DNA from: Psychrobacillus psychrodurans
Lineage (GTDB): Bacteria > Bacillota > Bacilli > Bacillales_A > Planococcaceae
NCBI GenBank assembly: GCA_900114885.1
Contig: FOUN01000001.1
Span: forward strand, 248,001 to 312,000
Direction: 5' to 3'
Length of the DNA: 64,000 nt
The notes under the pieces were generated by a model. It saw only the letters and a list, made by a program, of their open reading frames with translations. It searched no databases and was not told where the DNA came from. Made by a program: the position numbers and the translations under genes. This document shows positions 5,341-57,355 of the stretch, piece after piece. The first letter of the stretch is position 1. Each line of letters opens with the position of its first letter.

Positions 5341-6906
5341 TTATTCTTTAATAACTTCTTTCCCAGTAGAGAACCACTCTTCCACGTTCCATACTTTCGT
5401 TACAAGGTCTTCATAAAACTCAGGTTCATGGCTAACTAGCACAATTGTACCTTTGAATTCTTTCATTGCGCGTTTCAATTCTTCTTTTGCATGTATATCC
5501 AGATGATTTGTGGGCTCATCGAAAATTAACCAGTTTGTTTCTTCCATCATAAGCTTACACAGACGAACTTTTGCTTGCTCTCCACCACTTAAACTAGAGA
5601 GGGGACGGGAGATATGTTCGCTCTTAAGGCCAGTACGAGCTAATGCACCACGCACTTGGGCTTGGCCCATACTTGGATAGGTTTCCCAGATAGCTTCGAT
5701 TGGTGTAATGTTTCCAGGTTTTACTTCCTGTTCGAAATAACAAGGTGTTAAGAAATCACCACGTGTTACTGTCCCATTTACAGGCGGTATTTTGCCGAGA
5801 ATAGTTTTTAGTAAGGTCGATTTCCCGATTCCGTTCATTCCAACAAGTGCAATTTTTTCACCACGTTCAATTGTAAACGTCAATGGTGGTAGTAACGCTG
5901 AATCGTAACCGATTTCCAAGTGCTCAGCTTCTACAACGTAGCGACTAGGGCTACGAGATTCCTTGAAGCTAAATTCTGGTTTGGCTGCCGTTTCAGGGCG
6001 GTCAATTCGTTCAATTCGATCCAACTGTTTTTGACGAGATTTTGCTCGTCCTGTTGTGGAGTATCGCGCTTTATTTTTGGCGATAAAATCTTCTTGTTTC
6101 TTTATAAAATCCTGCTGCTTCTCATAAGCATCGATATGTTGTCTTTTATTCAGCTCGGCAAGTTCTAAGAACTTTTCATACGATGCAGTGTATCGTGTAA
6201 GTTTAGAAAATTCCAAGTGAAAAATAACATCGACAATTCCATTCATGAACTCGGTATCATGGGAAATCAATAAGAATGCGTGCGGATAGTTTTTCAAATA
6301 GTTGGAAAGCCAGTTTACATGCTCTTCGTCTAAATAGTTGGTAGGCTCATCAAGTAGCAATACTTTAGGCTTTTCTAATAATAGCTTTGCAAGTAAAACC
6401 TTAGTACGCTGACCGCCAGAAAGTGCTTCTACTGGACGGTCCAGTCCAATAGCATCCAATCCAAGACCGCGAGCAACTTCCTCTACCTTCATATCTAATG
6501 AATAAAAATCGCCAGCATCTAAAGCATCTTGAATTTCTGCCATTTGCTCTAATAATACTTCTAGCTCATCAGGTGTTGCATCGCCCATTTTACCGATTAT
6601 TACATTTAACTCTTCTTCTTTTTTATAAAGAGGTAAAAATGCATCACGAAGCGTATCAAACATAGAGCGTCCAGATTGTAGACGTGTATGCTGATCTAAA
6701 TATCCATAATGTGTGTTTGGTAACCATTCTACTCGACCTTCGTCATGAATGATTTCTCCTGTTAAAATATTCATCAATGTTGATTTACCAACACCGTTTG
6801 CACCTACAAGTCCTACATGCTCACCTTCGACTAAGCGAAATGAAACTTCCTTGAATAACGTACGATCACCGAATGTATGTCCTAAATTTTCTACTAATAA
6901 GCTCAT
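5341..6906 (-). CDS. ABC-F family ATPase
   Basis: A 521-residue protein with two ABC ATPase domains in one chain and no membrane segment, as in the ABC-F family that binds the ribosome E site. Domain 1 has Walker A GANGVGKST at residues 35-43, the signature LSGGQ at 162-166 and LLLDEPTNYLD. Domain 2 has Walker A GMNGIGKST, LSGGEQ and FDEPTNHLD. The charged linker between them (KQQDFIKKQEDFI and onward) is the P-site tRNA interaction segment. Length is close to Bacillus YfmM (about 518). Some ABC-F proteins give antibiotic resistance, but nothing here singles that out, and a housekeeping translation role is the safer reading. It lies 34 bp after the SE1561-like gene, so the two probably form one transcript. 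Confidence 0.93.
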   Translation of the reverse strand: MSLLVENLGHTFGDRTLFKEVSFRLVEGEHVGLVGANGVGKSTLMNILTGEIIHDEGRVEWLPNTHYGYLDQHTRLQSGRSMFDTLRDAFLPLYKKEEELNVIIGKMGDATPDELEVLLEQMAEIQDALDAGDFYSLDMKVEEVARGLGLDAIGLDRPVEALSGGQRTKVLLAKLLLEKPKVLLLDEPTNYLDEEHVNWLSNYLKNYPHAFLLISHDTEFMNGIVDVIFHLEFSKLTRYTASYEKFLELAELNKRQHIDAYEKQQDFIKKQEDFIAKNKARYSTTGRAKSRQKQLDRIERIDRPETAAKPEFSFKESRSPSRYVVEAEHLEIGYDSALLPPLTFTIERGEKIALVGMNGIGKSTLLKTILGKIPPVNGTVTRGDFLTPCYFEQEVKPGNITPIEAIWETYPSMGQAQVRGALARTGLKSEHISRPLSSLSGGEQAKVRLCKLMMEETNWLIFDEPTNHLDIHAKEELKRAMKEFKGTIVLVSHEPEFYEDLVTKVWNVEEWFSTGKEVIKE

Positions 6907-8256: not shown

Positions 8257-9015
8257 ATGGCTAAAAGGGTAGCTATAGTAGTAGGTGCTACGGGTTTTAC
8301 TGGACAGTTTTTAGTAAAACAACTATGTGAAAGTGAAGAGTATGCTGCGGTTTCAGTCATCGTCAGAAGAGATTTTTCTTATAAACATGCCAAACTAGAC
8401 ATTCAAGTAAAGGATTTTGATAAATTAGGGGAAAATGATTTAGATATTGCGGATGACCTATTTTGCTGTCTGGGCACTACAATGAAAAAAGCTAAATCAA
8501 AAAAGAACTTTGAGAAAGTAGATTTAGAATACCCATTACGAATTGCTTCTTTAGCCAAAAAACGTGGGATCCCAAATTTTCATGTTATCTCAGCGGTTGG
8601 GTCCAATAAAAAGTCCCCTTTCTTCTATAGTCAGGTGAAGGGTAGGATGGAGGAGGCGTTAATGGAAATGGAGCTACCACATCTTTTCATTTATAAACCA
8701 TCCTTGCTAACAGGTGACCGAGGCGAGTTTCGCCTAGCAGAGCGCCTATCTGAAGGTATTTTTCAACTTTTAAACCCTATATTAATAGGACCTTTAAGAA
8801 GAATGCGGTCCATTGAAGGGAAACAATTGGCTTTTGCTATGTACCATTACTCAATACATAATACTAAGAATGATGTAACAATTTATAGACCATTAGATAT
8901 TTTAAACGCTAAACCCTTAGAGGATATAGAGGAACAGCCGATTTCACGAGAAGAATTATTTAATTGGGAAAAGCGAGAAGATATTTTTGTAGATCCGGAA
9001 AAAGTCAATAAGTAA
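8257..9015 (+). CDS. NAD(P)-binding atypical SDR oxidoreductase
   Basis: A 252-residue Rossmann-fold protein of the atypical short-chain dehydrogenase group (HTATIP2/TIP30-like). The N-terminal dinucleotide motif GATGFTGQF lies near residues 10-18. The CLGTTMKKA segment and the YSQVKGRMEEAL helix, which carries the usual Tyr-x-x-x-Lys spacing, are typical. The frame is open upstream, but the start at 8257 is chosen because AAGGGGGAG precedes it and the motif then falls at the expected distance. It ends 11 bp before the antiporter gene, so the two are probably co-transcribed. The substrate is unknown. Confidence 0.85.
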   Translation: MAKRVAIVVGATGFTGQFLVKQLCESEEYAAVSVIVRRDFSYKHAKLDIQVKDFDKLGENDLDIADDLFCCLGTTMKKAKSKKNFEKVDLEYPLRIASLAKKRGIPNFHVISAVGSNKKSPFFYSQVKGRMEEALMEMELPHLFIYKPSLLTGDRGEFRLAERLSEGIFQLLNPILIGPLRRMRSIEGKQLAFAMYHYSIHNTKNDVTIYRPLDILNAKPLEDIEEQPISREELFNWEKREDIFVDPEKVNK

Positions 9016-10919: not shown

Positions 10920-11483
10920 GTGAAAATTCTACTCGTAGACGGAACGATAATTGGCACGAAAACAGGTGTCATCTTAGATCAAGTGAAAGACTATATAGAA
11001 GAAATTAATAAAGAGTACAAATTAGAGATTATTAGCCTTTCAAATTACGAGCATCAATTTGTAGATGGACGTCCATTTGAAAACTACAACGATGATATGA
11101 AACTGCTTGTAAGTAAATTTGACCAAGCGGATGGTTTTATAATTGCTTCACCTATTTTCCAGGGGTCCATACCAGGTGTACTAAAAAACACATTCGATTT
11201 CCTACATCCAAAGTCAATGCGCTATAAACCAGTATCAATCGTGGCAAATGGAGGAACATATCAGCATCATCTTGTAATTGAAAATCAGCTGAAACCGATA
11301 TTAGATTATTTTAGATGCCTAGTTACACCTAATTATGTGTATACTCATAAAAGCCATTTCGATGAAAATAATGTCATTATTGATAGTGATGTACATGATC
11401 GTTTAAGAGAGCTAGCTCGCGTATTTGTCCAATACGCCGAAATGAGCAAAAACCTCTGCAAAGAAACAATAGATGCACACTAA
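10920..11483 (+). CDS. NADPH-dependent FMN reductase-family protein
   Basis: A 187-residue flavodoxin-like protein of the NADPH-dependent FMN reductase family. The phosphate-binding loop of the FMN site is at the N-terminus (LVDGTIIGTKTG). The signature SPIFQGSIPGVLKNTFDFL near residues 80-98 is the family hallmark. The start is GTG at 10920, supported by AAGGAGG nine bases upstream; the overlapping TTG at 10918 is in another frame. It probably makes reduced flavin for other enzymes, the partner being unknown. It ends at a terminator that is itself copied in the tandem duplication that follows. Confidence 0.9.
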   Translation: MKILLVDGTIIGTKTGVILDQVKDYIEEINKEYKLEIISLSNYEHQFVDGRPFENYNDDMKLLVSKFDQADGFIIASPIFQGSIPGVLKNTFDFLHPKSMRYKPVSIVANGGTYQHHLVIENQLKPILDYFRCLVTPNYVYTHKSHFDENNVIIDSDVHDRLRELARVFVQYAEMSKNLCKETIDAH

Positions 11484-11491
11484 GTTAAACT

Positions 11492-11524
11492 AAGATGTCT
11501 CGGTAAATCGAGACATCTTTTTTA
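11492..11524 (+). terminator. Rho-independent terminator, first of two copies
   Basis: An 11-bp stem (11492-11502 with 11509-11519) followed by T. Most of it is repeated at about 11819-11850 because the tandem duplication begins inside its left arm. Confidence 0.9.
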
Positions 11525-11597
11525 TATGGAGTAACAAATGCTTAATAGCTGAAAGAGTATGAGAAAGTGATCTGCTTATGGAAAAAATATCCTAAGG

Positions 11598-11709
11598 GCA
11601 AGTAATAGCAACGGGAGAGCAAGTAAATAGAAAATAGTGCAAGTAAATCTATCTGGTGAGCAAGTTAAAATGAGCTGAAAGCAAGTAACCAGCTTGTGAG
11701 CGCAAGTAA
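11598..11709 (+). repeat. Six-box GCAAGTAA array, 21-bp phase (copy 1)
   Basis: GCAAGTAA or near matches start at 11598, 11619, 11639, 11660, 11681 and 11702, with spacings of 21, 20, 21, 21 and 21. The bases between boxes are not conserved. The same module recurs at three other places in the window. Confidence 0.9.
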
Positions 11710-11814: not shown

Positions 11815-11923
11815 GTATAATGTCTCGGTAAATCGAGACATCTTTTTTTATATGGAGTAACAAATGCTTAATAGCTGAAAGAGTATGAGAAAGTGACCTG
11901 CTTATGGAAAAAATATCCTAAGG

Positions 11924-12035
11924 GCAAGTAATAGCAACGGGAGAGCAAGTAAATAGAAAATAGCGCAAGTAAATTTATCTGGTGAGCAAGTTAAAATGAG
12001 CTGAAAGCAAGTAACCAGCTTGTGAGCGCAAGTAA
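11924..12035 (+). repeat. Six-box GCAAGTAA array, 21-bp phase (copy 2)
   Basis: This is the second copy of the array, offset by 326 bp from the first, with boxes at 11924, 11945, 11965, 11986, 12007 and 12028. Confidence 0.9.
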
Positions 12036-17036: not shown

Positions 17037-17378
17037 CTATTTCACCTCTTTCATCCTTTACTATTATGTCAATAATATCATTTGTTGAATATAATTTGTG
17101 AGAAAAAAGTAATGTTTCAGTAACGAAATGATGTAAATGTGACCGGTACTGGAGTTTCCAGAATAATTTATAGTGAATTGAGTATAAAATTAAATAAAAT
17201 CTATTATTCGTATGATAGAAAACACACACTAAATCGTAGTAGTAATTTGATGTGTAGATAAAACTATATTACCCTTGTAGCATATTAAAATAAGGTTGTA
17301 ATGTTTTTTAGGACAAAACTGAACCAATATAAAACGTGTGATATATTTAGGGTAGGGATTTATGAAAGGATGTTATTA
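17037..17378. other. Intergenic region with divergent promoters
   Basis: This AT-rich 342-bp gap separates the divergent GGDEF-EAL and topB genes. I see no repeat, no RNA structure and no convincing further gene. The short open frames in it lack ribosome sites. Confidence 0.6.
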
Positions 17379-19568
17379 ATGGCAAAACGTTTAGTGTTAG
17401 CAGAGAAACCATCTGTTGCACGTGATATTGCACGTGTACTTAAATGTGATAAAAAAGGAAATGGCTATTTAGAAGGCAAAGACTATATTGTTACTTGGGC
17501 TTTAGGGCATCTTGTAACCTTGGCAGATCCTGAGAGTTATGATGTGAAATATAAATCGTGGAATTTAGAAGATTTACCTATGCTACCCGATCACCTTAAA
17601 CTTACAGTTATAAAACAATCAGGAAAGCAATTCAATGCAGTGAAATCTCAACTTACTCGTGGAGACGTTAGTGAGATTATTATAGCAACTGACGCCGGTC
17701 GTGAGGGTGAATTAGTGGCGAGATGGATTATTGCAAAAGCAAAAGTAAATAAACCAATTAGACGACTATGGATATCATCTGTAACGGATAAAGCGATTAA
17801 AGATGGATTTACTAACTTAAAACCTGGTAAAGCATATGAAAACCTATACGCTTCAGCTGTAGCTCGCTCGGAGGCAGATTGGTATATTGGGTTAAATGCA
17901 AGTCGTGCATTAACTACAAAATTCAATGCGCAGCTAAACTGTGGAAGAGTACAAACTCCAGTCGTTGCTATTATTGCTAAGCGGGAAGAGGAGATTAAGC
18001 ACTTCAAAGCACAAACTTATTACGGAATAGAAGCGCAAACTATTGATAAGTTAAAGCTTACTTGGCAAGATGCTCAAGGAAATAGCCGGAGCTTCGATAA
18101 AGAAAAAATTGATGCGATTGTAAAAAAACTAGGCAATACTAATGCGACGGTGACGGAAATTGAAAGGAAACCAAAGAAAACATATTCACCTGGTCTATAT
18201 GATCTAACTGAACTTCAGCGTGATGCCAATAAAATCTTTGGTTTTTCTGCAAAAGATACATTAAATATAATGCAAAAGCTGTATGAACAGCACAAAGTAT
18301 TAACATATCCAAGAACAGATTCACGTTTCATCTCGACAGATATTGTTGGAACGCTTGCTGAACGTCTTAAAGCTTGTGGTATAGGGGAATATCGCTTGCT
18401 AACCAATAAGATTTTAAAAAGACCTATAAAAGCTTCGAAAACGTTTGTCGATGATAGCAAAGTCAGTGATCATCATGCGATTATTCCAACAGAAGGCTAT
18501 GTAAATTTCTCAGCTTTTAATGATAAAGAACGCAAAATTTACGATTTAGTAGTAAAACGCTTCTTAGCAGTATTATTCCCGGCATTTGAATACGAGCAAT
18601 TAACTCTTCGTGCAAAAATCAGTGATGAAAAATTCGTTGCTAGTGGGAAAACTATTTTATCAAGTGGTTGGAAAGAAGTATATGAAAATCGATTCGAAGA
18701 CGATGATACTTCGGAAGACTTAAAAGAACAAATTCTACCTCGTATAGAAAAAGGGAATACTTTAAACGTAACATTAATTGCGCAGATTTCAGGACAAACA
18801 AAGCCACCTGCTCGTTTTAATGAAGCAACATTACTATCGGCAATGGAAAATCCGTCGAAGTTTATGGAAACACAAAATAAAAACCTTGCTGAAACATTGA
18901 AATCCACTGGTGGATTGGGTACTGTCGCAACACGTGCAGACATTATCGAAAAGTTATTTAATTCATTTTTAATGGAGAAAAAAGGAAAGGATATATACCT
19001 AACTTCAAAAGGAAAACAGCTGCTTGATTTAGTCCCGGAAGAATTAAAATCTCCTACACTTACGGCTAAGTGGGAGCAAAAACTTGAAGCTATTGCTAAT
19101 GGCAAACTGAAAAAAGAAGTATTTATATCAGAAATGAAAAACTACACAAAAGAAATCGTATCGGAGATTAAAGGTAGCGATAAAAAATACAAGCACGATA
19201 ACATATCCACGAAATCTTGCCCAGATTGCGGAAAACCAATGCTTGAAGTAAACGGTAAAAAAGGCAAAATGCTTGTATGTCAGGATCGCGAATGTGGACA
19301 TCGTAAAAATGTAGCCCGTGTTACCAACGCTCGATGCCCACAGTGTAAAAAGAAATTAGAACTTCGTGGGGAAGGAGAAGGTCAAATTTTCGTATGTAAA
19401 TGTGGTCATCGAGAGAAATTATCTGCTTTTGAAGCGCGCCGTAAAAAAGAGGGTGGCGGTAAAGTAGATAAAAAATCTGTTCAGAAGTATTTGAAACAAC
19501 AAGATAAAGAAGAAGAGCCGATTAATAATGCTTTTGCAGATTTATTAAAAGGGATGAAATTTGATTAG
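17379..19568 (+). CDS. topB: DNA topoisomerase III
   Basis: A 729-residue type IA topoisomerase that relaxes and decatenates DNA through a single-strand break. The Toprim motif DAGREGE is near residue 105. The catalytic Tyr lies in LTYPRTDSRF at about residue 310. The C-terminus (after about 600) has two Cys4-type zinc clusters: CPDC with CQDREC, and CPQC with CKC. The length fits Bacillus TopB (727). The start at 17379 (MAKRLVL) is chosen because AAAGGA lies eight bases upstream; the frame is open further upstream. A long perfect-stem terminator follows. Confidence 0.95.
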   Translation: MAKRLVLAEKPSVARDIARVLKCDKKGNGYLEGKDYIVTWALGHLVTLADPESYDVKYKSWNLEDLPMLPDHLKLTVIKQSGKQFNAVKSQLTRGDVSEIIIATDAGREGELVARWIIAKAKVNKPIRRLWISSVTDKAIKDGFTNLKPGKAYENLYASAVARSEADWYIGLNASRALTTKFNAQLNCGRVQTPVVAIIAKREEEIKHFKAQTYYGIEAQTIDKLKLTWQDAQGNSRSFDKEKIDAIVKKLGNTNATVTEIERKPKKTYSPGLYDLTELQRDANKIFGFSAKDTLNIMQKLYEQHKVLTYPRTDSRFISTDIVGTLAERLKACGIGEYRLLTNKILKRPIKASKTFVDDSKVSDHHAIIPTEGYVNFSAFNDKERKIYDLVVKRFLAVLFPAFEYEQLTLRAKISDEKFVASGKTILSSGWKEVYENRFEDDDTSEDLKEQILPRIEKGNTLNVTLIAQISGQTKPPARFNEATLLSAMENPSKFMETQNKNLAETLKSTGGLGTVATRADIIEKLFNSFLMEKKGKDIYLTSKGKQLLDLVPEELKSPTLTAKWEQKLEAIANGKLKKEVFISEMKNYTKEIVSEIKGSDKKYKHDNISTKSCPDCGKPMLEVNGKKGKMLVCQDRECGHRKNVARVTNARCPQCKKKLELRGEGEGQIFVCKCGHREKLSAFEARRKKEGGGKVDKKSVQKYLKQQDKEEEPINNAFADLLKGMKFD

Positions 19569-38374: not shown

Positions 38375-38487
38375 TTACTTGCTTTCAATACCTTTTTACT
38401 TGCTCTAGTGCTTGAATTACTTGCTCTTTACTGAGGCTTACTTGTTCTTATGTGGTATTTACTTGCTCTGACTCAACGTTTACTTGC
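38375..38487 (-). repeat. Six-box GCAAGTAA array, 21-bp phase, reverse orientation
   Basis: On the minus strand six boxes (read as TTACTTGC on the plus strand) end at 38382, 38403, 38424, 38445, 38466 and 38487, exactly 21 bp apart. It lies in the 525-bp gap between cwlJ and hemQ, oriented along both flanking genes. Confidence 0.92.
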
Positions 38488-38564
38488 GAATAGGGAAATA
38501 TTGGAAGTGTATTGTGAAGAAAATGAAAAAAAGAAGCCCGTTCCTCTCTCAACAGAAACCTAGA

Positions 38565-44628: not shown

Positions 44629-44655
44629 GATGGCTTTTTTGATAGGTAAGAAAAA

Positions 44656-44745
44656 ATGTACTTTGAACACCTGGTTTGCGCATCTAAAGATTCACTCGGT
44701 AATAAAATAGCAACAAGTCTATTCAAAGCCCTACACAAACACTAG
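44656..44745 (+). CDS. Putative 29-residue peptide, paralogue of the one at 45462
   Basis: A short frame ends KDSLGNKIATSLFKALHKH. A second copy 806 bp downstream ends in the same pattern. AGGTAAG lies in front of the ATG. Each copy is followed by a terminator-like hairpin. The helix would be amphipathic and basic. It may instead be a noncoding repeat that happens to be open. Confidence 0.35.
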   Translation: MYFEHLVCASKDSLGNKIATSLFKALHKH

Positions 44746-44766
44746 AGACGGGTTTATATTTTAAGA

Positions 44767-44796
44767 ACCGGTCGTCTTTCTCCCCGGTTTTTCTTA
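44767..44796 (+). terminator. Terminator after the small ORF, copy A
   Basis: ACCGG (44767-44771) pairs with CCGGT (44784-44788) and a T run follows. The same arrangement follows copy B. Confidence 0.6.
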
Positions 44797-44880
44797 AAAG
44801 ATAAGAAAGTATATAAAAATGTCCAGTGAACACTGGGTTCTCGACACTTTTAAGAGAGAATAATCCTGCTGATTTTCGTT

Positions 44881-45120
44881 TCAGGTGGTTACAAAGGAAC
44901 GAAGGCTAAAAGCGCCACCTCGTGTGGGAACTCCTTCGTGACCAACCTCCTGTTGGCCTCCGTGGGTGTTGCCTCAGCCTCCTCGCTGGAAAACAAATGC
45001 TCCTGCGGTTACTCGTCGCAAAGACATTACCCAAACAAAGTTTGGCCAATGTCTTCGCTGTGGGGTCTTCGCCTAACGCTTCTCCCACTGGAGTCGCTAC
45101 CGTGCACTACAATCAACTAT
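44881..45120. repeat. GC-rich palindromic intergenic region
   Basis: This 240-bp stretch is much more GC-rich than its surroundings. It holds a strong hairpin (AAGACATT at 45021-45028 with AATGTCTT at 45048-45055, and CCAAAC at 45031-45036 with GTTTGG at 45040-45045). Part of it (44906-44965) matches the repeat at 28950-29036 in reverse. The open frames in all directions here look like chance products of base composition. Confidence 0.5.
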
Positions 45121-45461
45121 GTGAGTAGTTCCCATTATTAAATTTGGCAAAGCATATCGCTTAGATAATAAGATTAGTCCAAGTTAATGTAGGGAAAAAC
45201 CATTTGTAATTACTGTTGAATTAGAAATGCTATTATTTCATGATGGATGAAGGAATCAGACTTTCTTTTTACCAGTGGAAATAAAGAGAAGTGGTAAGTA
45301 TTTGCCTCATAAAGAAGCGAAGTAGTTCACGAAATTGCATCTTCGTGAGCTTCCTCTATGAATAGGAAAGTGTCTTATCTCTAGTTATCCAAAAATGCAC
45401 TAATCTGTTTCTTAGCGTTGTAGGAGGGCGACGGACAGGCAAACGCCATAAGATTACCAAT

Positions 45462-45527
45462 ATGACTAAAAATTCACTCGGTAATCATATAGCAAAACGT
45501 CTGTCCAAAGCACTTCGAAAACGTTAG
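45462..45527 (+). CDS. Putative 21-residue cationic peptide
   Basis: A short frame from ATG at 45462 encodes a peptide ending SLGNHIAKRLSKALRKR. It parallels the ORF at 44656-44745. The frame is open further upstream without a clear start; GGAGGG lies about 35 bases before. A terminator-like hairpin follows at 45549-45578. Two diverged copies support a small gene family, but coding is not proven. Confidence 0.35.
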   Translation: MTKNSLGNHIAKRLSKALRKR

Positions 45528-45548
45528 AAACAGGTTTTGAACTTAAAG

Positions 45549-45578
45549 GACCGGGTGTTTTTTTCCCCTGGTTTTTCT
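45549..45578 (+). terminator. Terminator after the small ORF, copy B
   Basis: ACCGGG pairs with CCTGGT (wobble) around a T- and C-rich loop and is followed by TTTTTC. It is the diverged partner of the terminator at 44767. Confidence 0.55.
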
Positions 45579-45599
45579 TATGTAAAAATTATCCTTTCC

Positions 45600-45711
45600 G
45601 CAAGTAAAAGTTACTTAAGAGCAAGTAAACTGAGAAGTAGCACAAGTAACTAATAAAGAGAGCAAGTAAATCACAATTGAGCGCAAGTATACGACAGGAG
45701 AGAGAAAGTAA
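45600..45711 (+). repeat. Six-box GCAAGTAA array, 21-bp phase
   Basis: Boxes start at 45600, 45621, 45642, 45662, 45683 and 45704 (spacing 21, 21, 20, 21, 21). The third and sixth are weaker (ACAAGTAA and GAAAGTAA). It lies at the end of a 1.15-kb gap between ywgA and ywhB. Confidence 0.9.
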
Positions 45712-52708: not shown

Positions 52709-54376
52709 ATGAACGCAGTAGAACAGCTACAACAATCTATTAAAGACGCATTACAACAAGCAATTATAAAAGCAGAACTTGTAACGGAAGAGCAAATTCC
52801 CGCAATCCAACTTGAAACACCAAGAGATAAAGCGAATGGGGATTACGCAACAAATATTGCAATGCAGCTAACAAAACTTGCGAAAAAGAATCCTCGTCAA
52901 GTGGCGGACGCAATCGTGGAAAATCTTGATATGTCGGGAACAATGATGGAGAAGATTGACATCGCTGGTCCTGGATTCATGAATATCACGGTTCGTAAAG
53001 ATTACTTACAAGATGTAGTAAAGGCTGCCCTCACAGAAAAAGAAAACTTTGGCCGTTCAACTTCAGGTGCGGGAGAAAAAATTCAAGTGGAATTCGTATC
53101 TGCTAATCCAACTGGTGACTTACATTTAGGGCATGCCCGTGGAGCTTCTGTAGGAGATTCTTTATGTAATGTGCTTGATTTTGCTGGATTTGACGTTGCT
53201 CGCGAATATTATATTAACGATGCCGGAAACCAAATTCATAACCTAGCTATTTCGATTGAAGCTCGTTATTTCCAAGCTTTAGGATTAGATAAAGAAATGC
53301 CTGAAGGTGGCTACCACGGGCAGGATATTATCGACATCGCAGCTGCTCTTGTTGCAGAACATGGCGAAAAATTTGTATCCATGTCGGATGAAGATCGCTA
53401 CAAAGCATTTCGTGCACATGGGTTAAAAGTAGAGCTTGCAAAACTTCAAAAAGACTTAGCTGATTTCCGTGTTGGTTTTGATAACTGGTTCTCGGAAACA
53501 TCTTTATATGAGAACCGTAAAATTGAAGTAGCTTTAGATAAATTACGTGCGAACGGTCATATTTTTGAAGAAGACGGAGCAACTTGGTTCCGTTCTACTA
53601 CATTTGGAGACGACAAGGACCGTGTACTTATCAAAAGTGATGGCTCTTTCACATATTTATTGCCCGATATTGCATACCACGAAGATAAATTAGTTCGTGG
53701 ATTCGATCAATTGATCAATATATGGGGAGCAGACCATCACGGCTATATACCACGTATGAAAGCAGCAATTGAGGCGCTTGGGTATGAGCGTGAAAAACTT
53801 GAAGTATCAATTATACAAATGGTTCAACTATATAAAGACGGCGAAAAAATGAAAATGAGTAAACGTACTGGGAAAGCTGTTACAATGCGTGAGCTTGTGG
53901 AAGAAGTAGGTCTAGACGCAGTACGTTATTTCTTCGGTATGCGATCAGGCGACTCACATATGGACTTCGACTTAGACTTAGCTGTTTCTCAATCTAATGA
54001 AAACCCAGTGTTCTACGCTCAATATGCACATGCACGTATTTGTTCAATTTTACGATCAGCAGAAACGCAAGGCATGAAAGTGTCGACTGATTCACTTGAA
54101 TTATTGCAAAGTGAAAAAGAATTAGATCTACTGAAGAAAATTGGTGACTTCCCACAAATAGTTGCAGATGCTGCAAAACTTCGTGCACCTCACCGAATTG
54201 CAATTTATATCCAAGAATTAGCTACGACATTCCATAGCTTCTATAATGCGGATAAAGTACTGAATGCGGATAACGTGACGCAATCAGAAGCTCGCCTTGC
54301 ACTTGTAACAGCAGCACGTCAAACAATCTCAAATGCATTGCGCCTACTTGGTGTATCTGCACCTGAACAAATGTAA
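52709..54376 (+). CDS. argS: Arginyl-tRNA synthetase
   Basis: A 555-residue class I synthetase. It has an N-terminal Add1 domain, the HIGH-type motif HLGHARG near 137-143, KMSKRTG near 380, and the DALR anticodon domain near the C-terminus ([14 protein letters not shown] onward). Length and motifs match Bacillus ArgS (556). The ribosome site GGAGGCGG sits within the end of ywiB. Confidence 0.96.
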
Positions 54377-54380
54377 TCCT

Positions 54381-54409
54381 AAACCCTCGACCTTGTTCGA
54401 GGGTTTTTC
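54381..54409 (+). terminator. Rho-independent terminator of argS
   Basis: AAACCCTCGA (54381-54390) pairs with TCGAGGGTTT (54397-54406) and is followed by T. Confidence 0.92.
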
Positions 54410-54460
54410 TAATTTTATGTAGTATACGATCATCAAGAATTTGGGGAAATAATCCTAACC

Positions 54461-55875
54461 GCAAGTAAATGCATCTCAAGAGCAAGTAAACATTACCTGT
54501 TCGCAAGTATTTCTATCTAGAACTTTAGTAAAGCTCCAGTAACACCAAGTAAACAACAAACGAGAGCAAGTAAACGTTAATTCCTCTCTTATATCAGAGC
54601 AATCTCCAAATTCTCAAGTTGAAAAATTGGAATTAACTTCCTGAACGCAAGTAAATGCCTCTCAAGAGCAAGTAAACATAACCCGTTCGCAAGTATTTCT
54701 ATCCTGAACGCAAGTAAAGGACCGGTGACAGCAAGTAAACAACAAACGAGAGCAAGTAAACGTTAATTCCTCTCTTATATCAGAGCAATCTCCAAATTAT
54801 TAAGTTGAAAGGTTGGAATTAACTTCCTAACCGCAAGTAAATGCCTCTCAAGAGCAAGTAAGGATAACCCGTTCGCAAGTATTTCTATCTAGAACTTTAG
54901 TAAAGCTCCAGTAACACCAAGTAAACAACAAACGAGAGCAAGTAAACGTTAATTCCTCTCATATATCAGAGCAATCTCCAAATTATCAAGTTGAAAAATT
55001 GGAATTAACTTCCTGAACGCAAGTAAATGCATCTCAAGAGCAAGTAAGGATAACCCGTTCGCAAGTATTTCTATCTAGAACTTTAGTAAAGCTCCAGTAA
55101 CACCAAGTAAACGACAAACGAGAGCAAGTAAACGTTAATTCCTCTCTTATACCAGAGCAATCTCCAAATTATCAAGTTGAAAGGTTGGAATTAACTTCCT
55201 GAACGCAAGTAAATGCCTCTCAAGAGCAAGTAAACATAACCCGTTCGCAAGTATTTCTATCTAGAACTTTAGTAAAGATCCAGTAACGGCAAGTAAACAA
55301 CAAACGAGAGCAAGTAAAAGTTAATTCCTCTCTTATATCAGAGCAATCTCCAAATTATCAAGTTGAAAATTTGGGATTAACTTCCTAATCGCAAGTAAAT
55401 GCCTCTCAAGAGCAAGTAAACATTACCCGTTCGCAAGTATTTCTATCTTTAACATAAGTAAAGCTCCAGTAACACCAAGTAAACGACAAACGAGAGCAAG
55501 TAAACGTTAATTCCTCTCCTATATCAGAGCAATCTCCAAAATATCAAGTTGAAAAATTGGAATTAACTTCCTAACCGCAAGTAAATGCATCTCAAGAGCA
55601 AGTATGCCTAGCCTATTCACAAGTATTTCTATCCTGAACGCAAGTAAAGGTCCGGTGACACCAAGTAAACGACAAACGAGAGCAAGTAAACGTTAATTCC
55701 TCTCTTATATCAGAGCAATCTCCAAATTATTAAGTTGAAAAATTGGAATTAACTTCCTAACCGCAAGTAAATGCCTCTCAAGAGCAAGTATTCATAACCC
55801 GTTCGCAAGTATTTCTATCCTGAACGCAAGTAAAGGTCCAGTAACACCAAGAAAACAACAAACGAGAGCAAGTAA
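54461..55875 (+). repeat. Satellite of eight six-box modules with a 186-bp period
   Basis: The module starts at 54461, 54647, 54833, 55019, 55205, 55391, 55577 and 55763, always 186 bp apart. Each has boxes at offsets 0, 21, 42, 63, 84 and 105, read as GCAAGTAA with variants (TTTAGTAA, CCAAGTAA). An 80-bp linker follows. It is framed by GTTAATTCC and GGAATTAAC, a perfect 9-bp inverted repeat. The copies share well over 90 percent of positions by eye. All three frames contain stops, so it is not coding. The whole lies between argS and the cobalamin riboswitch. Confidence 0.95.
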
Positions 55876-55941
55876 ATGCAAGTTCATCCCTTACACAATA
55901 GCGGGGAGCAACTGTATGAGAGATATCCCCAGCCCAGCTAT

Positions 55942-56028
55942 ACGAAAGGGAATCTATACTTCACGAGAATGATATATATACGAAAGAGAATACACGCTTT
56001 ACGAGAGCAATCTCTCAATATACAAGAG
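55942..56028 (+). repeat. Second phased array, ACGARAG boxes
   Basis: ACGAAAG/ACGAGAG/ACAAGAG boxes start at 55942, 55963, 55980, 56001 and 56022, with spacings of 21, 17, 21 and 21. It directly follows the GCAAGTAA satellite and has a different core. No convincing gene lies here. Confidence 0.5.
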
Positions 56029-56077
56029 AGCTCAACTCCATCCCAAAGGTCGAACCACTCTATCCTCAAAGTTGAAG

Positions 56078-56105: not shown

Positions 56106-56138
56106 GAAGACAAAGCAACATCAATAAATAAATGCATA

Positions 56139-56360
56139 GAGGTGCTCTAGTTACGGATTGCTAGAGTTAAAAGGGAAGCTGGTTAAAGTCCAGCACGGTC
56201 CCGCCACTGTAAGTGATGCAACACATCATAAGTCAGAAAACCTGCCTATATGCTTTACGCCCGTTACCTACGAGGATAGGTTTGGTGTAGGTCTGGCTCA
56301 TTGTGTTTTCGTGCAGATTTATACCTATCTATCTCTCATCAATAGGATGGGAGATTTTTT
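56139..56360 (+). promoter_or_regulatory. Cobalamin riboswitch with terminator
   Basis: The leader shows the conserved blocks of a cobalamin riboswitch: GGGAAGCTGGTTAAAGTCC, CGGTCCCGCCACTGTAAG, and the B12 box AGTCAGAAAACCTGCC. It ends in a terminator hairpin (56331-56340 with 56346-56355) and six T. With cobalamin bound, the terminator should form and switch off the operon. The start position is approximate. Confidence 0.92.
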
Positions 56361-56386: not shown

Positions 56387-57355
56387 ATGAAGAAATTATG
56401 GCAGTTATGGATGACATCCGCTTTAGCAGTTCTATTGCTAGTAGGATGCGGACAAGAAGAAGTTAAACCTGAAGAAAATACAGGAAGTACGCAACAAGAA
56501 ACAGTAGTAGATGAAACAACTTTCCCAATTACAATGACCGATGCAGTCGGTACTGAAATTACATTAGAGGAAGCACCAAAAACAATCGTTTCTATGCAAC
56601 CAAGTAATACAGAAATTTTATTTGCACTTGGATTAAATGATGAAATTGTTGGAGTTAATGATTACGATAACTACCCAGAAGAAGCGCTTGAAAAAGAGAA
56701 AATCGGTGGTATGGAATTCAACGTGGAAAAGATCTTAGCGATGAATCCGGATATTGTATTTGCTCATGAATCTGCCTTGGGTGTAGGTGAAGCTGGATTT
56801 CAACAAATTCGCGACGCTGGAGTAAAAGTATACGTAGTGAAAAATGCAACGGACTTCAATGAAACATATACAACAATTGAGGAAATTGGTCGTGCTACTG
56901 GTAAATCTGAGGAAGCACAACAAATTGTAGAAGATATGAAAGCAAAAGTAGCAGAAGTTAAAGAGAAAGTAGCAAAAGTAGAAACGAAGAAAACTGTATT
57001 CGTTGAAACTTCAGATGTTCCGGAAATTTATACACCTGGTAAAGAAACGTTCATGCAAGAAATCTTAGATATGGTGAATGCTGAGAATATTGCAGCAGAT
57101 CAAGAAGGTTGGTTTAAAATAGAACCAGAAGAAATTGTTAACCGTAATCCGGACGTAATTATTGTAATGTATAGCCATGTAGAAGGAATTGTGGATAGCG
57201 TGAAAGCTCGTGACGGGTTCGATTCTATTACAGCTGTGAAAAACAATGAAGTTATACAAGTAGATGAAAACCTAACAAGTCGTACAGGTCCACGTCTTGC
57301 AGAGGGATTAGAAGAAGTAGCGAAAGCAATTTATCCAGAGGCTTTTAGTGAGTAA
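56387..57355 (+). CDS. btuF: Cobalamin-binding lipoprotein of the ABC importer
   Basis: A 322-residue substrate-binding protein with a lipoprotein signal peptide (lipobox LVGC, Cys near residue 21) and a Thr- and Glu-rich linker. The class III binding fold follows (PKTIVSMQPSNTEILFALGL, then NPDIVFA). It brings corrinoids to BtuC. It has a good AGGAGG site and is the first gene after the riboswitch. It overlaps btuC by 8 bp. Confidence 0.92.
   Translation: MKKLWQLWMTSALAVLLLVGCGQEEVKPEENTGSTQQETVVDETTFPITMTDAVGTEITLEEAPKTIVSMQPSNTEILFALGLNDEIVGVNDYDNYPEEALEKEKIGGMEFNVEKILAMNPDIVFAHESALGVGEAGFQQIRDAGVKVYVVKNATDFNETYTTIEEIGRATGKSEEAQQIVEDMKAKVAEVKEKVAKVETKKTVFVETSDVPEIYTPGKETFMQEILDMVNAENIAADQEGWFKIEPEEIVNRNPDVIIVMYSHVEGIVDSVKARDGFDSITAVKNNEVIQVDENLTSRTGPRLAEGLEEVAKAIYPEAFSE

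What the first reader, a model, noticed from the sequence alone, without database searches (positions are those of the whole stretch)
45600..45711. A recurring six-box DNA module with 21-bp (two-turn) spacing
At four intergenic loci the 8-bp box GCAAGTAA appears six times in a row at 21 bp (rarely 20). The loci are 11598-11709 (with a copy at 11924-12035), 38375-38487 on the minus strand, 45600-45711 and 54461-55875. The spacers are unrelated between loci, so the boxes and their phase are what is kept. Six boxes on one face of the helix suggests a protein that binds cooperatively, such as a nucleoid, partition, terminus or mobile-repeat factor. I know of no described element with this form. 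The binding idea is inference; the pattern itself is plainly in the sequence.
Basis: seen in the sequence. Interest (0 to 1): 0.88.

Follow-up and report, generated by a model that had tools for sequence, protein, structure and literature searches.

The report
Six-box phased DNA arrays, Bacillales chromosomes
Some bacteria of the Bacillus order carry dozens of short non-coding DNA modules, each about six copies of one 8-letter word two helix turns apart, and the words are kept by evolution while the DNA between them drifts, which points to an unknown protein that reads them.

Summary
GCAAGTAA occurs 51 times in the window against 2.85 expected; its genome (Psychrobacillus) has 210 pairs at 20-21 bp, the reversed pattern 0. 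The unit is more than six boxes: a conserved, partly palindromic motif (TTTGGAWAAATTATCCNTTYC) ends at box 1. In 50 of 50 loci read no ORF lies on the array's strand; the preceding gene is co-oriented in 37 of 48. In 17 orthologous pairs boxes are 85-90% identical, spacers 62-67%: boxes and phase look selected. Variable-spacer arrays occur in seven other Bacillales genera. The box changes by species (GCAAGTAA, GAGAGTAA, GACGAGTAAA, TTGGGAGTAAA, CGCGAGTAAA, TTGTMGTAA, GCAACTAA), only TAA constant, as if following an evolving reader protein. RNA-fold, coding, phage and plain-repeat readings fare badly. Correction: spacers are not unrelated genome-wide; many modules are diverged copies of one dispersed family. 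Best reading: a host-maintained DNA platform for a cooperatively binding protein at ends of transcription units. The protein and its job are unknown. No description was found in the papers searched.

The parts
11495..11523 (+). terminator (hairpin plus T tract) after the FMN-reductase-like gene 10920-11483, before the first module
   Evidence: read directly; repeat start; gene
11576..11597 (+). upstream motif of module 1 (TTATGGAAAAAATATCCTAAGG)
11598..11709 (+). six-box module 1, steps 21/20/21/21/21
   Evidence: orthologous array in G004
11902..12035 (+). tandem copy of module 1 with its upstream motif (boxes 11924-12035)
38488..38509 (-). upstream stretch of module 2 (CACTTCCAATATTTCCCTATTC), a poor match to the motif
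38375..38487 (-). six-box module 2, all steps 21
   Evidence: present in G007 in the same orientation and in G004 inverted
45578..45599 (+). upstream motif of module 3 (TTATGTAAAAATTATCCTTTCC)
45600..45711 (+). six-box module 3 (the finding's coordinates), steps 21/21/20/21/21
   Evidence: present in G004 and G007
54381..54406 (+). terminator-like hairpin after the arginyl-tRNA synthetase gene 52709-54376, before the tandem array
54439..55875 (+). eight tandem 186-bp units, each an upstream motif plus a six-box module; one module at this place in G004 and G007

Best explanation
Each module is a DNA-level platform. An unidentified sequence-specific protein starts at the upstream motif (one period before box 1, partly palindromic) and occupies the six boxes, all on one face of the helix, to make one cooperative nucleoprotein block of about 130 bp, typically beyond the end of a transcription unit. 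Shown: the anatomy, the intergenic position, the usual co-orientation, a terminator just before it in most Fictibacillus and a minority of Psychrobacillus loci, the selection on boxes and register, and species-wide change of the box. Inferred: that a protein reads it, that binding is cooperative, and that the block acts as a boundary, either by stopping read-through transcription or by anchoring and insulating the chromosome segment. About 0.7 for a DNA-level protein platform kept by the host; about 0.35 that its job is boundary or roadblock.
For: Boxes against spacers in 17 orthologous pairs (14 G000 modules, against G004, G007, G008): 724/803 against 717/1068; with gaps counted 724/848 against 717/1156. 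Without conditioning on the second genome, 7 comparisons at the 4 window loci: 293/336 against 330/452; all 4 window loci kept in G004, 3 of 3 covered in G007. Register: 909 of 967 steps are 21 bp, 50 are 20, 4 are 22, the fit of two turns of B-DNA (recalled). Box number: 136 of 201 modules have six, 24 five, 21 seven, 19 four, 1 nine; some sevens count the upstream motif. Upstream motif: T97 G91 G89 at -19 to -17, C94 C94 at -7, -6, n=35. RNA folds no better than spacer shuffles, mean z +0.66 and +0.46, n=35. Box change by species: position 3 is A in 0.92-0.95 of boxes in G000, G004, G008 and 0.62 in G007; GAGAGTAA in G005 (3 loci, 26 boxes), with the upstream motif clear at one of the three; GCAACTAA in G009. 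Terminator T tract within 100 bp upstream, same strand, in 42 of 139 loci and downstream in 3; Fictibacillus 18 against 1 of 26. Gene before the array on the same strand in 37 of 48 loci; 16 convergent, 5 divergent.
Against: No binding protein was found. At window 38375 the array is inverted in G004 with its boxes kept, and one array lies antisense inside the pur operon, so orientation to transcription is not essential. A terminator within 100 bp upstream was found for only 24 of 113 Psychrobacillus loci; opposite-strand terminators lie upstream in 13 and downstream in 16 of 139 loci. Modules are related copies, so part of their likeness is descent. In 1 of 7 window comparisons (45600 against G004) and 1 of 17 pairs spacers are more alike than boxes. 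Only 7 of 17 pairs have no gap; the others have 1-50 gap columns. Loci in G004, G007 and G008 were fetched because they match the box, which biases those box counts upward, and my caller favours 21-bp steps.
Confidence: 0.5

Rival explanations
1. A non-autonomous mobile element (MITE-like) with six phased transposase sites that inserts beyond terminators; boxes are kept because only copies with good boxes move.
For: Modules are index-by-index related across loci, with 32 of 48 G000 loci joined at 55% spacer identity. In G009 near-identical spacers recur at several loci. Presence and absence differ between species, e.g. an array in G004 and G007 absent at window 33673. In Fictibacillus a T tract ends 16-51 bp before box 1 in 17 of 26 loci.
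Against: Boxes stay conserved at fixed orthologous sites while spacers drift, which mobility alone does not explain. No target-site duplication was established at the two presence/absence sites read. No autonomous copy with a gene was recognised in the array loci read, but this was not searched systematically.
Confidence: 0.27
2. An RNA element: read-through transcripts expose six GCAAGUAA boxes as a single-stranded landing site or sponge for an RNA-binding protein.
For: Mostly sense orientation 3' of genes; the predicted RNA is, if anything, less folded than spacer shuffles.
Against: The near-strict 21-bp register through diverged spacers has no clear reason in unstructured RNA. Inverted and antisense copies keep their boxes. 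No Rfam match.
Confidence: 0.1
3. A REP-like element handled by a RAYT (Y1 tyrosine transposase): species dialects, position downstream of genes.
For: Y1_Tnp genes in 18 of 19 Psychrobacillus genomes and in 10 of 11 array genomes of other genera. At one syntenic place the RAYT is of a divergent type in the six genomes G000, G004, G005, G007, G008, G014 and in 0 of 11 others read; the palindrome TGGTGCCWGGCACCA is absent from those six and in 9 of 13 others.
Against: G009 has arrays (box GCAACTAA) together with 20 palindromes and the common RAYT type, and G001, G012, G015, G018 have arrays of other dialects with the common type and palindromes, so arrays and palindromes do not exclude each other. 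No array was called in 20 stretches around Y1_Tnp genes of the genus (one holds no RAYT frame) or in 10 further loci; that caller is tuned to GTAA boxes. Of the 11 other genomes Planococcus koreensis has no Y1_Tnp and Kurthia only a 136-aa IS200-like frame. Boxes form no hairpin.
Confidence: 0.04
4. Ordinary tandem repeats that arose by slippage, with no function.
For: Kurthia, Aquibacillus and one Bacillus have runs of 5-14 much alike 21-bp units; whole modules duplicate in tandem.
Against: 45 of 62 Bacillales loci have mean spacer identity below 0.5, against 0 of 15 loci from other phyla with the same box pattern; boxes conserved at orthologous sites.
Confidence: 0.05

Closest known systems
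REP / BIME elements and their RAYT transposases
   Same: Dispersed, extragenic, mostly between co-directional or convergent genes, downstream of coding regions, many families species-specific (abstract of PMC3733652 seen)
   Different: REPs are 20-40 bp palindromes with a GTAG or CGTC tag; here no palindrome in the box, direct repeats at a fixed two-turn phase, about six per module, no array beside the RAYT genes read
Plasmid iterons and partition centromeres (recalled)
   Same: Direct repeats at about two helix turns, bound by one protein per repeat on one face
   Different: One or few sites per replicon next to the initiator or partition gene; here about 50 chromosomal loci, with no such gene recognised beside those read
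DNA uptake sequence dialects of Neisseriaceae
   Same: Species dialects around a short constant core, association with terminators (passages of PMC3630211 seen)
   Different: DUS are single short words in thousands of copies, often inverted pairs; here phased direct hexads at roughly 50 loci, in Firmicutes, with a constant core of only TAA
bcr repeats of the Bacillus cereus group (recalled; only a search listing seen)
   Same: Dispersed intergenic repeats in Bacillales
   Different: Not compared by sequence; recalled as longer, structured repeats

Membership tests
REP (GTAG/CGTC) elements | palindromic unit able to form a hairpin | tested here: not met
   RNA fold no better than spacer shuffles, n=35; box GCAAGTAA is not self-complementary
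REP (GTAG/CGTC) elements | copies flank a RAYT gene | tested here: not met
   no array called in 20 stretches around Y1_Tnp genes of the genus or in 10 further loci; the single box downstream of five lies inside the neighbouring ORF
REP (GTAG/CGTC) elements | located downstream of genes, extragenic | tested here: met
   50 of 50 G000 loci without an ORF of 70 aa or more on the array's own strand; preceding gene co-oriented in 37 of 48
Iterons of a replication origin | phased direct repeats at about two turns | tested here: met
   909 of 967 steps are 21 bp
Iterons of a replication origin | single locus beside an initiator gene | tested here: not met
   50 loci in one genome; neighbours looked at are housekeeping genes
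Known structured RNA family | match to an Rfam model | tested here: not met
   only a cobalamin riboswitch and Bacillaceae-1 RNA in the window, neither on a module; no module match in 20 further loci
Phage or viral element | present in viral genomes | tested here: not met
   9 viral contigs matched the exact triple; on reading they look like coding or short plain repeats
MITE | terminal inverted repeats and target-site duplication | tested here: inconclusive
   none recognised at the two presence/absence sites read; no systematic search
Ordinary tandem repeat | whole unit alike, spacer included | tested here: not met
   45 of 62 Bacillales loci below 0.5 spacer identity; 10 of 62 at 0.7 or more do look like plain repeats

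The most novel reading that the evidence does not exclude
A new kind of bacterial chromosome element: some fifty hexameric, helically phased 'address' arrays per genome that mark the ends of transcription units, read by a fast-evolving DNA-binding protein whose change of specificity is followed by the box across the genome, so that each species has its own dialect on one fixed two-turn scaffold.
Probability: 0.3. Interest if true: 0.93.

Novelty: categorically new. Interest (0 to 1): 0.8.

Why it matters
If a protein reads these modules, it is a chromosome-wide DNA-binding system in a large bacterial order that, as far as I could find, has no name yet. Its box dialects give a natural experiment in how a regulator and tens of its sites change together, and the two-turn hexads give a clean target for a pull-down. 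If they are boundaries, they would be a bacterial counterpart of roadblock or insulator arrays known from eukaryotes (recalled).

Tried and rejected
Head-on replication conflict: strand counts first suggested that arrays avoid the leading strand, but gene direction and GC skew in the fetched pieces show that the G004 and G008 contigs start near the terminus; 41 of 55 modules lie on the leading strand. Rejected.

RNA structure: mean z +0.66 (plus) and +0.46 (minus) against spacer shuffles in 35 modules. Rejected.

Coding heptads (21 = 7 codons): steps of 20 occur, each box holds AAG-TAA in one frame, and no sense ORF of 70 aa or more covers the 50 arrays; antisense ORFs of 70-167 aa overlap 13 of 50. 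Rejected.

Viral origin. Rejected. Non-Bacillales hits: 15 loci, none with spacer identity below 0.5, so ordinary repeats.

A larger composite element: repeats near window 44640-45580 recur beside some arrays and also away from them. Set aside.

I lowered this rival from 0.08 to 0.04, raised the mobile rival from 0.25 to 0.27 for the near-identical G009 spacers, dropped the RAYT from the novel case, and gave up my earlier claim of a constant GTAA core: only TAA is constant.

Gene neighbours as a clue to function: housekeeping genes of several kinds. No pattern found.

Rows dropped: of 41 candidate orthologous pairs I kept those with at least 800 bp of flank at over 80% identity, one pair per locus pair, and added L163/L124 by hand, giving 17; the pair window 38375/L165 fell out by the one-per-locus rule and is counted in the window set. 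Of 20 dialect loci read, G064 and G106 looked like coding or tandem repeats and G029 gave no call; G079 and G015 have much alike spacers. The family scan (40 of 261) includes coding repeats and its control also rings in several genomes; its AGTAA core misses dialects such as GCAACTAA, so the spread is not measured.

Papers: searches; the library holds open-licence papers only. Seen: search listings for all, outline and abstract of PMC3733652, twelve passages of PMC3630211.

Full report
Observation. GCAAGTAA occurs 51 times in the window against a shuffled mean of 2.85. At 45600-45711 only three of six boxes are exact, the others one letter off. 54461-55875 is eight tandem 186-bp units with six phased boxes each. 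In the whole genome (G000, 4.0 Mb, 47 contigs) there are 210 box pairs at 20-21 bp, with 0 for the reversed pattern. I read 42 stretches of it, the window included; the last 25 of 125 places were not listed, so some arrays may be missing.

Anatomy. Among 201 modules of four or more boxes called in five genome sets, 136 have six boxes, 24 five, 21 seven, 19 four and 1 nine; 909 of 967 steps are 21 bp, 50 are 20, 4 are 22 (the caller favours 21 and allows 19-23). Some sevens arise because the upstream motif resembles a box. In Fictibacillus the corresponding stretch is TTTTATGAAAATGATGTGTTTT, again usually followed by six boxes. Tandem arrays in the window and other G000 loci are mostly copies of the whole six-box module; in Ureibacillus acetophenoni the unit is shorter, about 102 bp.

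Position. Of 50 G000 loci none has an ORF of 70 aa or more on its own strand; 13 overlap short antisense ORFs. The preceding gene is on the same strand in 37 of 48 loci; 16 loci are convergent, 5 divergent (ORF calls are crude). A hairpin with T tract lies within 100 bp upstream, same strand, in 42 of 139 loci and downstream in 3; opposite-strand ones lie upstream in 13 and downstream in 16. Fictibacillus gives 18 of 26 upstream, Psychrobacillus 24 of 113. Exceptions: an array inside the pur operon in antisense and one inverted in G004. In G004 and G008, 41 of 55 modules read lie on the leading strand.

Selection. Against G004, G007 and G008, 17 orthologous pairs (14 G000 modules) with at least 800 bp of alignable flank give 724/803 identical box letters and 717/1068 identical spacer letters; with gaps counted as differences 724/848 and 717/1156. 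Identity by column is 0.81-0.98 over the box and 0.59-0.77 elsewhere. Those loci were fetched because they match the box. A comparison free of that choice uses the window: all 4 array loci are present in G004 and 3 of 3 in the part covered by G007, with 293/336 box and 330/452 spacer letters identical over 7 comparisons. In one of the 7 (45600 against G004) and one of the 17 the spacers are more alike than the boxes. Two arrays of relatives are absent from the window. Seven of 17 pairs have no gap, five of these with spacer identity of 0.58-0.72; the rest have 1-50 gap columns.

Dispersed family. Spacers are not random between loci: same-index spacers are at least 65% alike in 108 of 1126 pairs, 0 of 4474 when rotated. 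In G009 nearly the same spacers recur at several loci. So modules spread by copying and then drifted, while boxes and register stayed.

Distribution and dialects. A scan of one genome for each of 84,980 species with the exact triple gave 77 loci. Of 62 in Bacillales, 45 have mean spacer identity below 0.5; of 15 in other phyla, none. Genera with low-identity spacers besides Psychrobacillus: Fictibacillus, Ureibacillus, Planococcus, Neobacillus, Metabacillus, Peribacillus and Bacillus (B. pinisoli); Kurthia, Aquibacillus and Bacillus sp. 522_BSPC look more like plain tandem repeats. A looser family scan (AGTAA six times at 21 bp, up to 3 mismatches) rings in 40 of 261 genomes, some with coding repeats; its control rings too in some. 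Reading 20 loci of 12 genomes from it showed five- or six-box phased arrays with other boxes: GAGAGTAA (G005), GACGAGTAAA (G127), TTGGGAGTAAA (G156), CGCGAGTAAA (G173), TTGTMGTAA (G001, G012, G018), and more repeat-like GGTAAGTAAA (G079) and TTGCGAGTAA (G015); G064, G106 and G029 were set aside. G009 has GCAACTAA. Only TAA is constant. In G007 position 3 of the box is A in 0.62, against 0.92-0.95 in G000, G004 and G008. A change of one box position over many loci in one species is what a changed reader protein would leave.

Mechanism. A near-strict two-turn phase through drifting spacers, no RNA fold, no coding frame, and copies that keep boxes when inverted or antisense argue for double-stranded DNA read by a protein. 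The motif one period before box 1 gives a possible starting point. Position beyond gene ends suggests a boundary or roadblock; this last step is inference. I could not name the protein.

A lead that weakened. A RAYT-like gene (Y1_Tnp) lies at one syntenic place in the genus. In G000, G004, G005, G007, G008 and G014 it is of a divergent type, while 11 others read have the common type. Protein identity of G000 to the common type is 0.48-0.55 in the six genomes where the shared neighbour is 0.71-0.76. The palindrome TGGTGCCWGGCACCA is absent from those six and present in 9 of 13 others. But G009 has arrays, palindromes and the common type together, and no array flanks the RAYT genes read. The divergence is real; its link to the arrays is not shown.

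Novelty. Defining features of REPs, iterons, Rfam RNAs, phage elements and plain tandem repeats were tested and one or more not met in each (membership table). No description was found in the searches, in an open-licence library. The parts (dispersed repeats, phased sites, dialects) are each known; their union on a chromosome is, to my knowledge, not.

Noticed in passing
L225 6214-6561, L217 about 8420-8540, L166, L156; remnants at window 55876-56030: A second 21-bp periodic family with box TATACGAGAG (steps 21 and 19), at several places next to GCAAGTAA arrays.
   Followed up: partly
G000:C9:42579-42914 (L247) and syntenic loci L249-L252, L278: RAYT-like gene with strong divergence in six Psychrobacillus genomes that also lack the palindrome TGGTGCCWGGCACCA.
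   Followed up: partly
G009, e.g. L284, L286: Arrays with the box GCAACTAA and nearly the same spacers at several loci, a recently spread dialect beside 20 palindromes.
   Followed up: no
window 44640-45580: Other dispersed intergenic repeats, with a Bacillaceae-1 RNA at 44890-44956; pieces recur beside some arrays and elsewhere.
   Followed up: partly
L115 3116-3228 (+) and 3403-3515 (-): Two arrays facing each other about 175 bp apart; two arrays of opposite strand also lie together in G007 (L162) and in G004 near 1463000.
   Followed up: no
window 56123-56263: Cobalamin riboswitch upstream of a periplasmic binding protein gene at 56387.
   Followed up: no
window 5341-6906 (-) and 17301-19568 (+): PADLOC matches to mad3 (6.1e-52) and DpdF (1.7e-119); may only reflect shared ATPase or helicase domains.
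   Followed up: no
L054 about 312-404: In Fictibacillus one run of five GTGAGTAA boxes with differing spacers stands before GCAAGTAA boxes, as if two readers exist in one genome.
   Followed up: no
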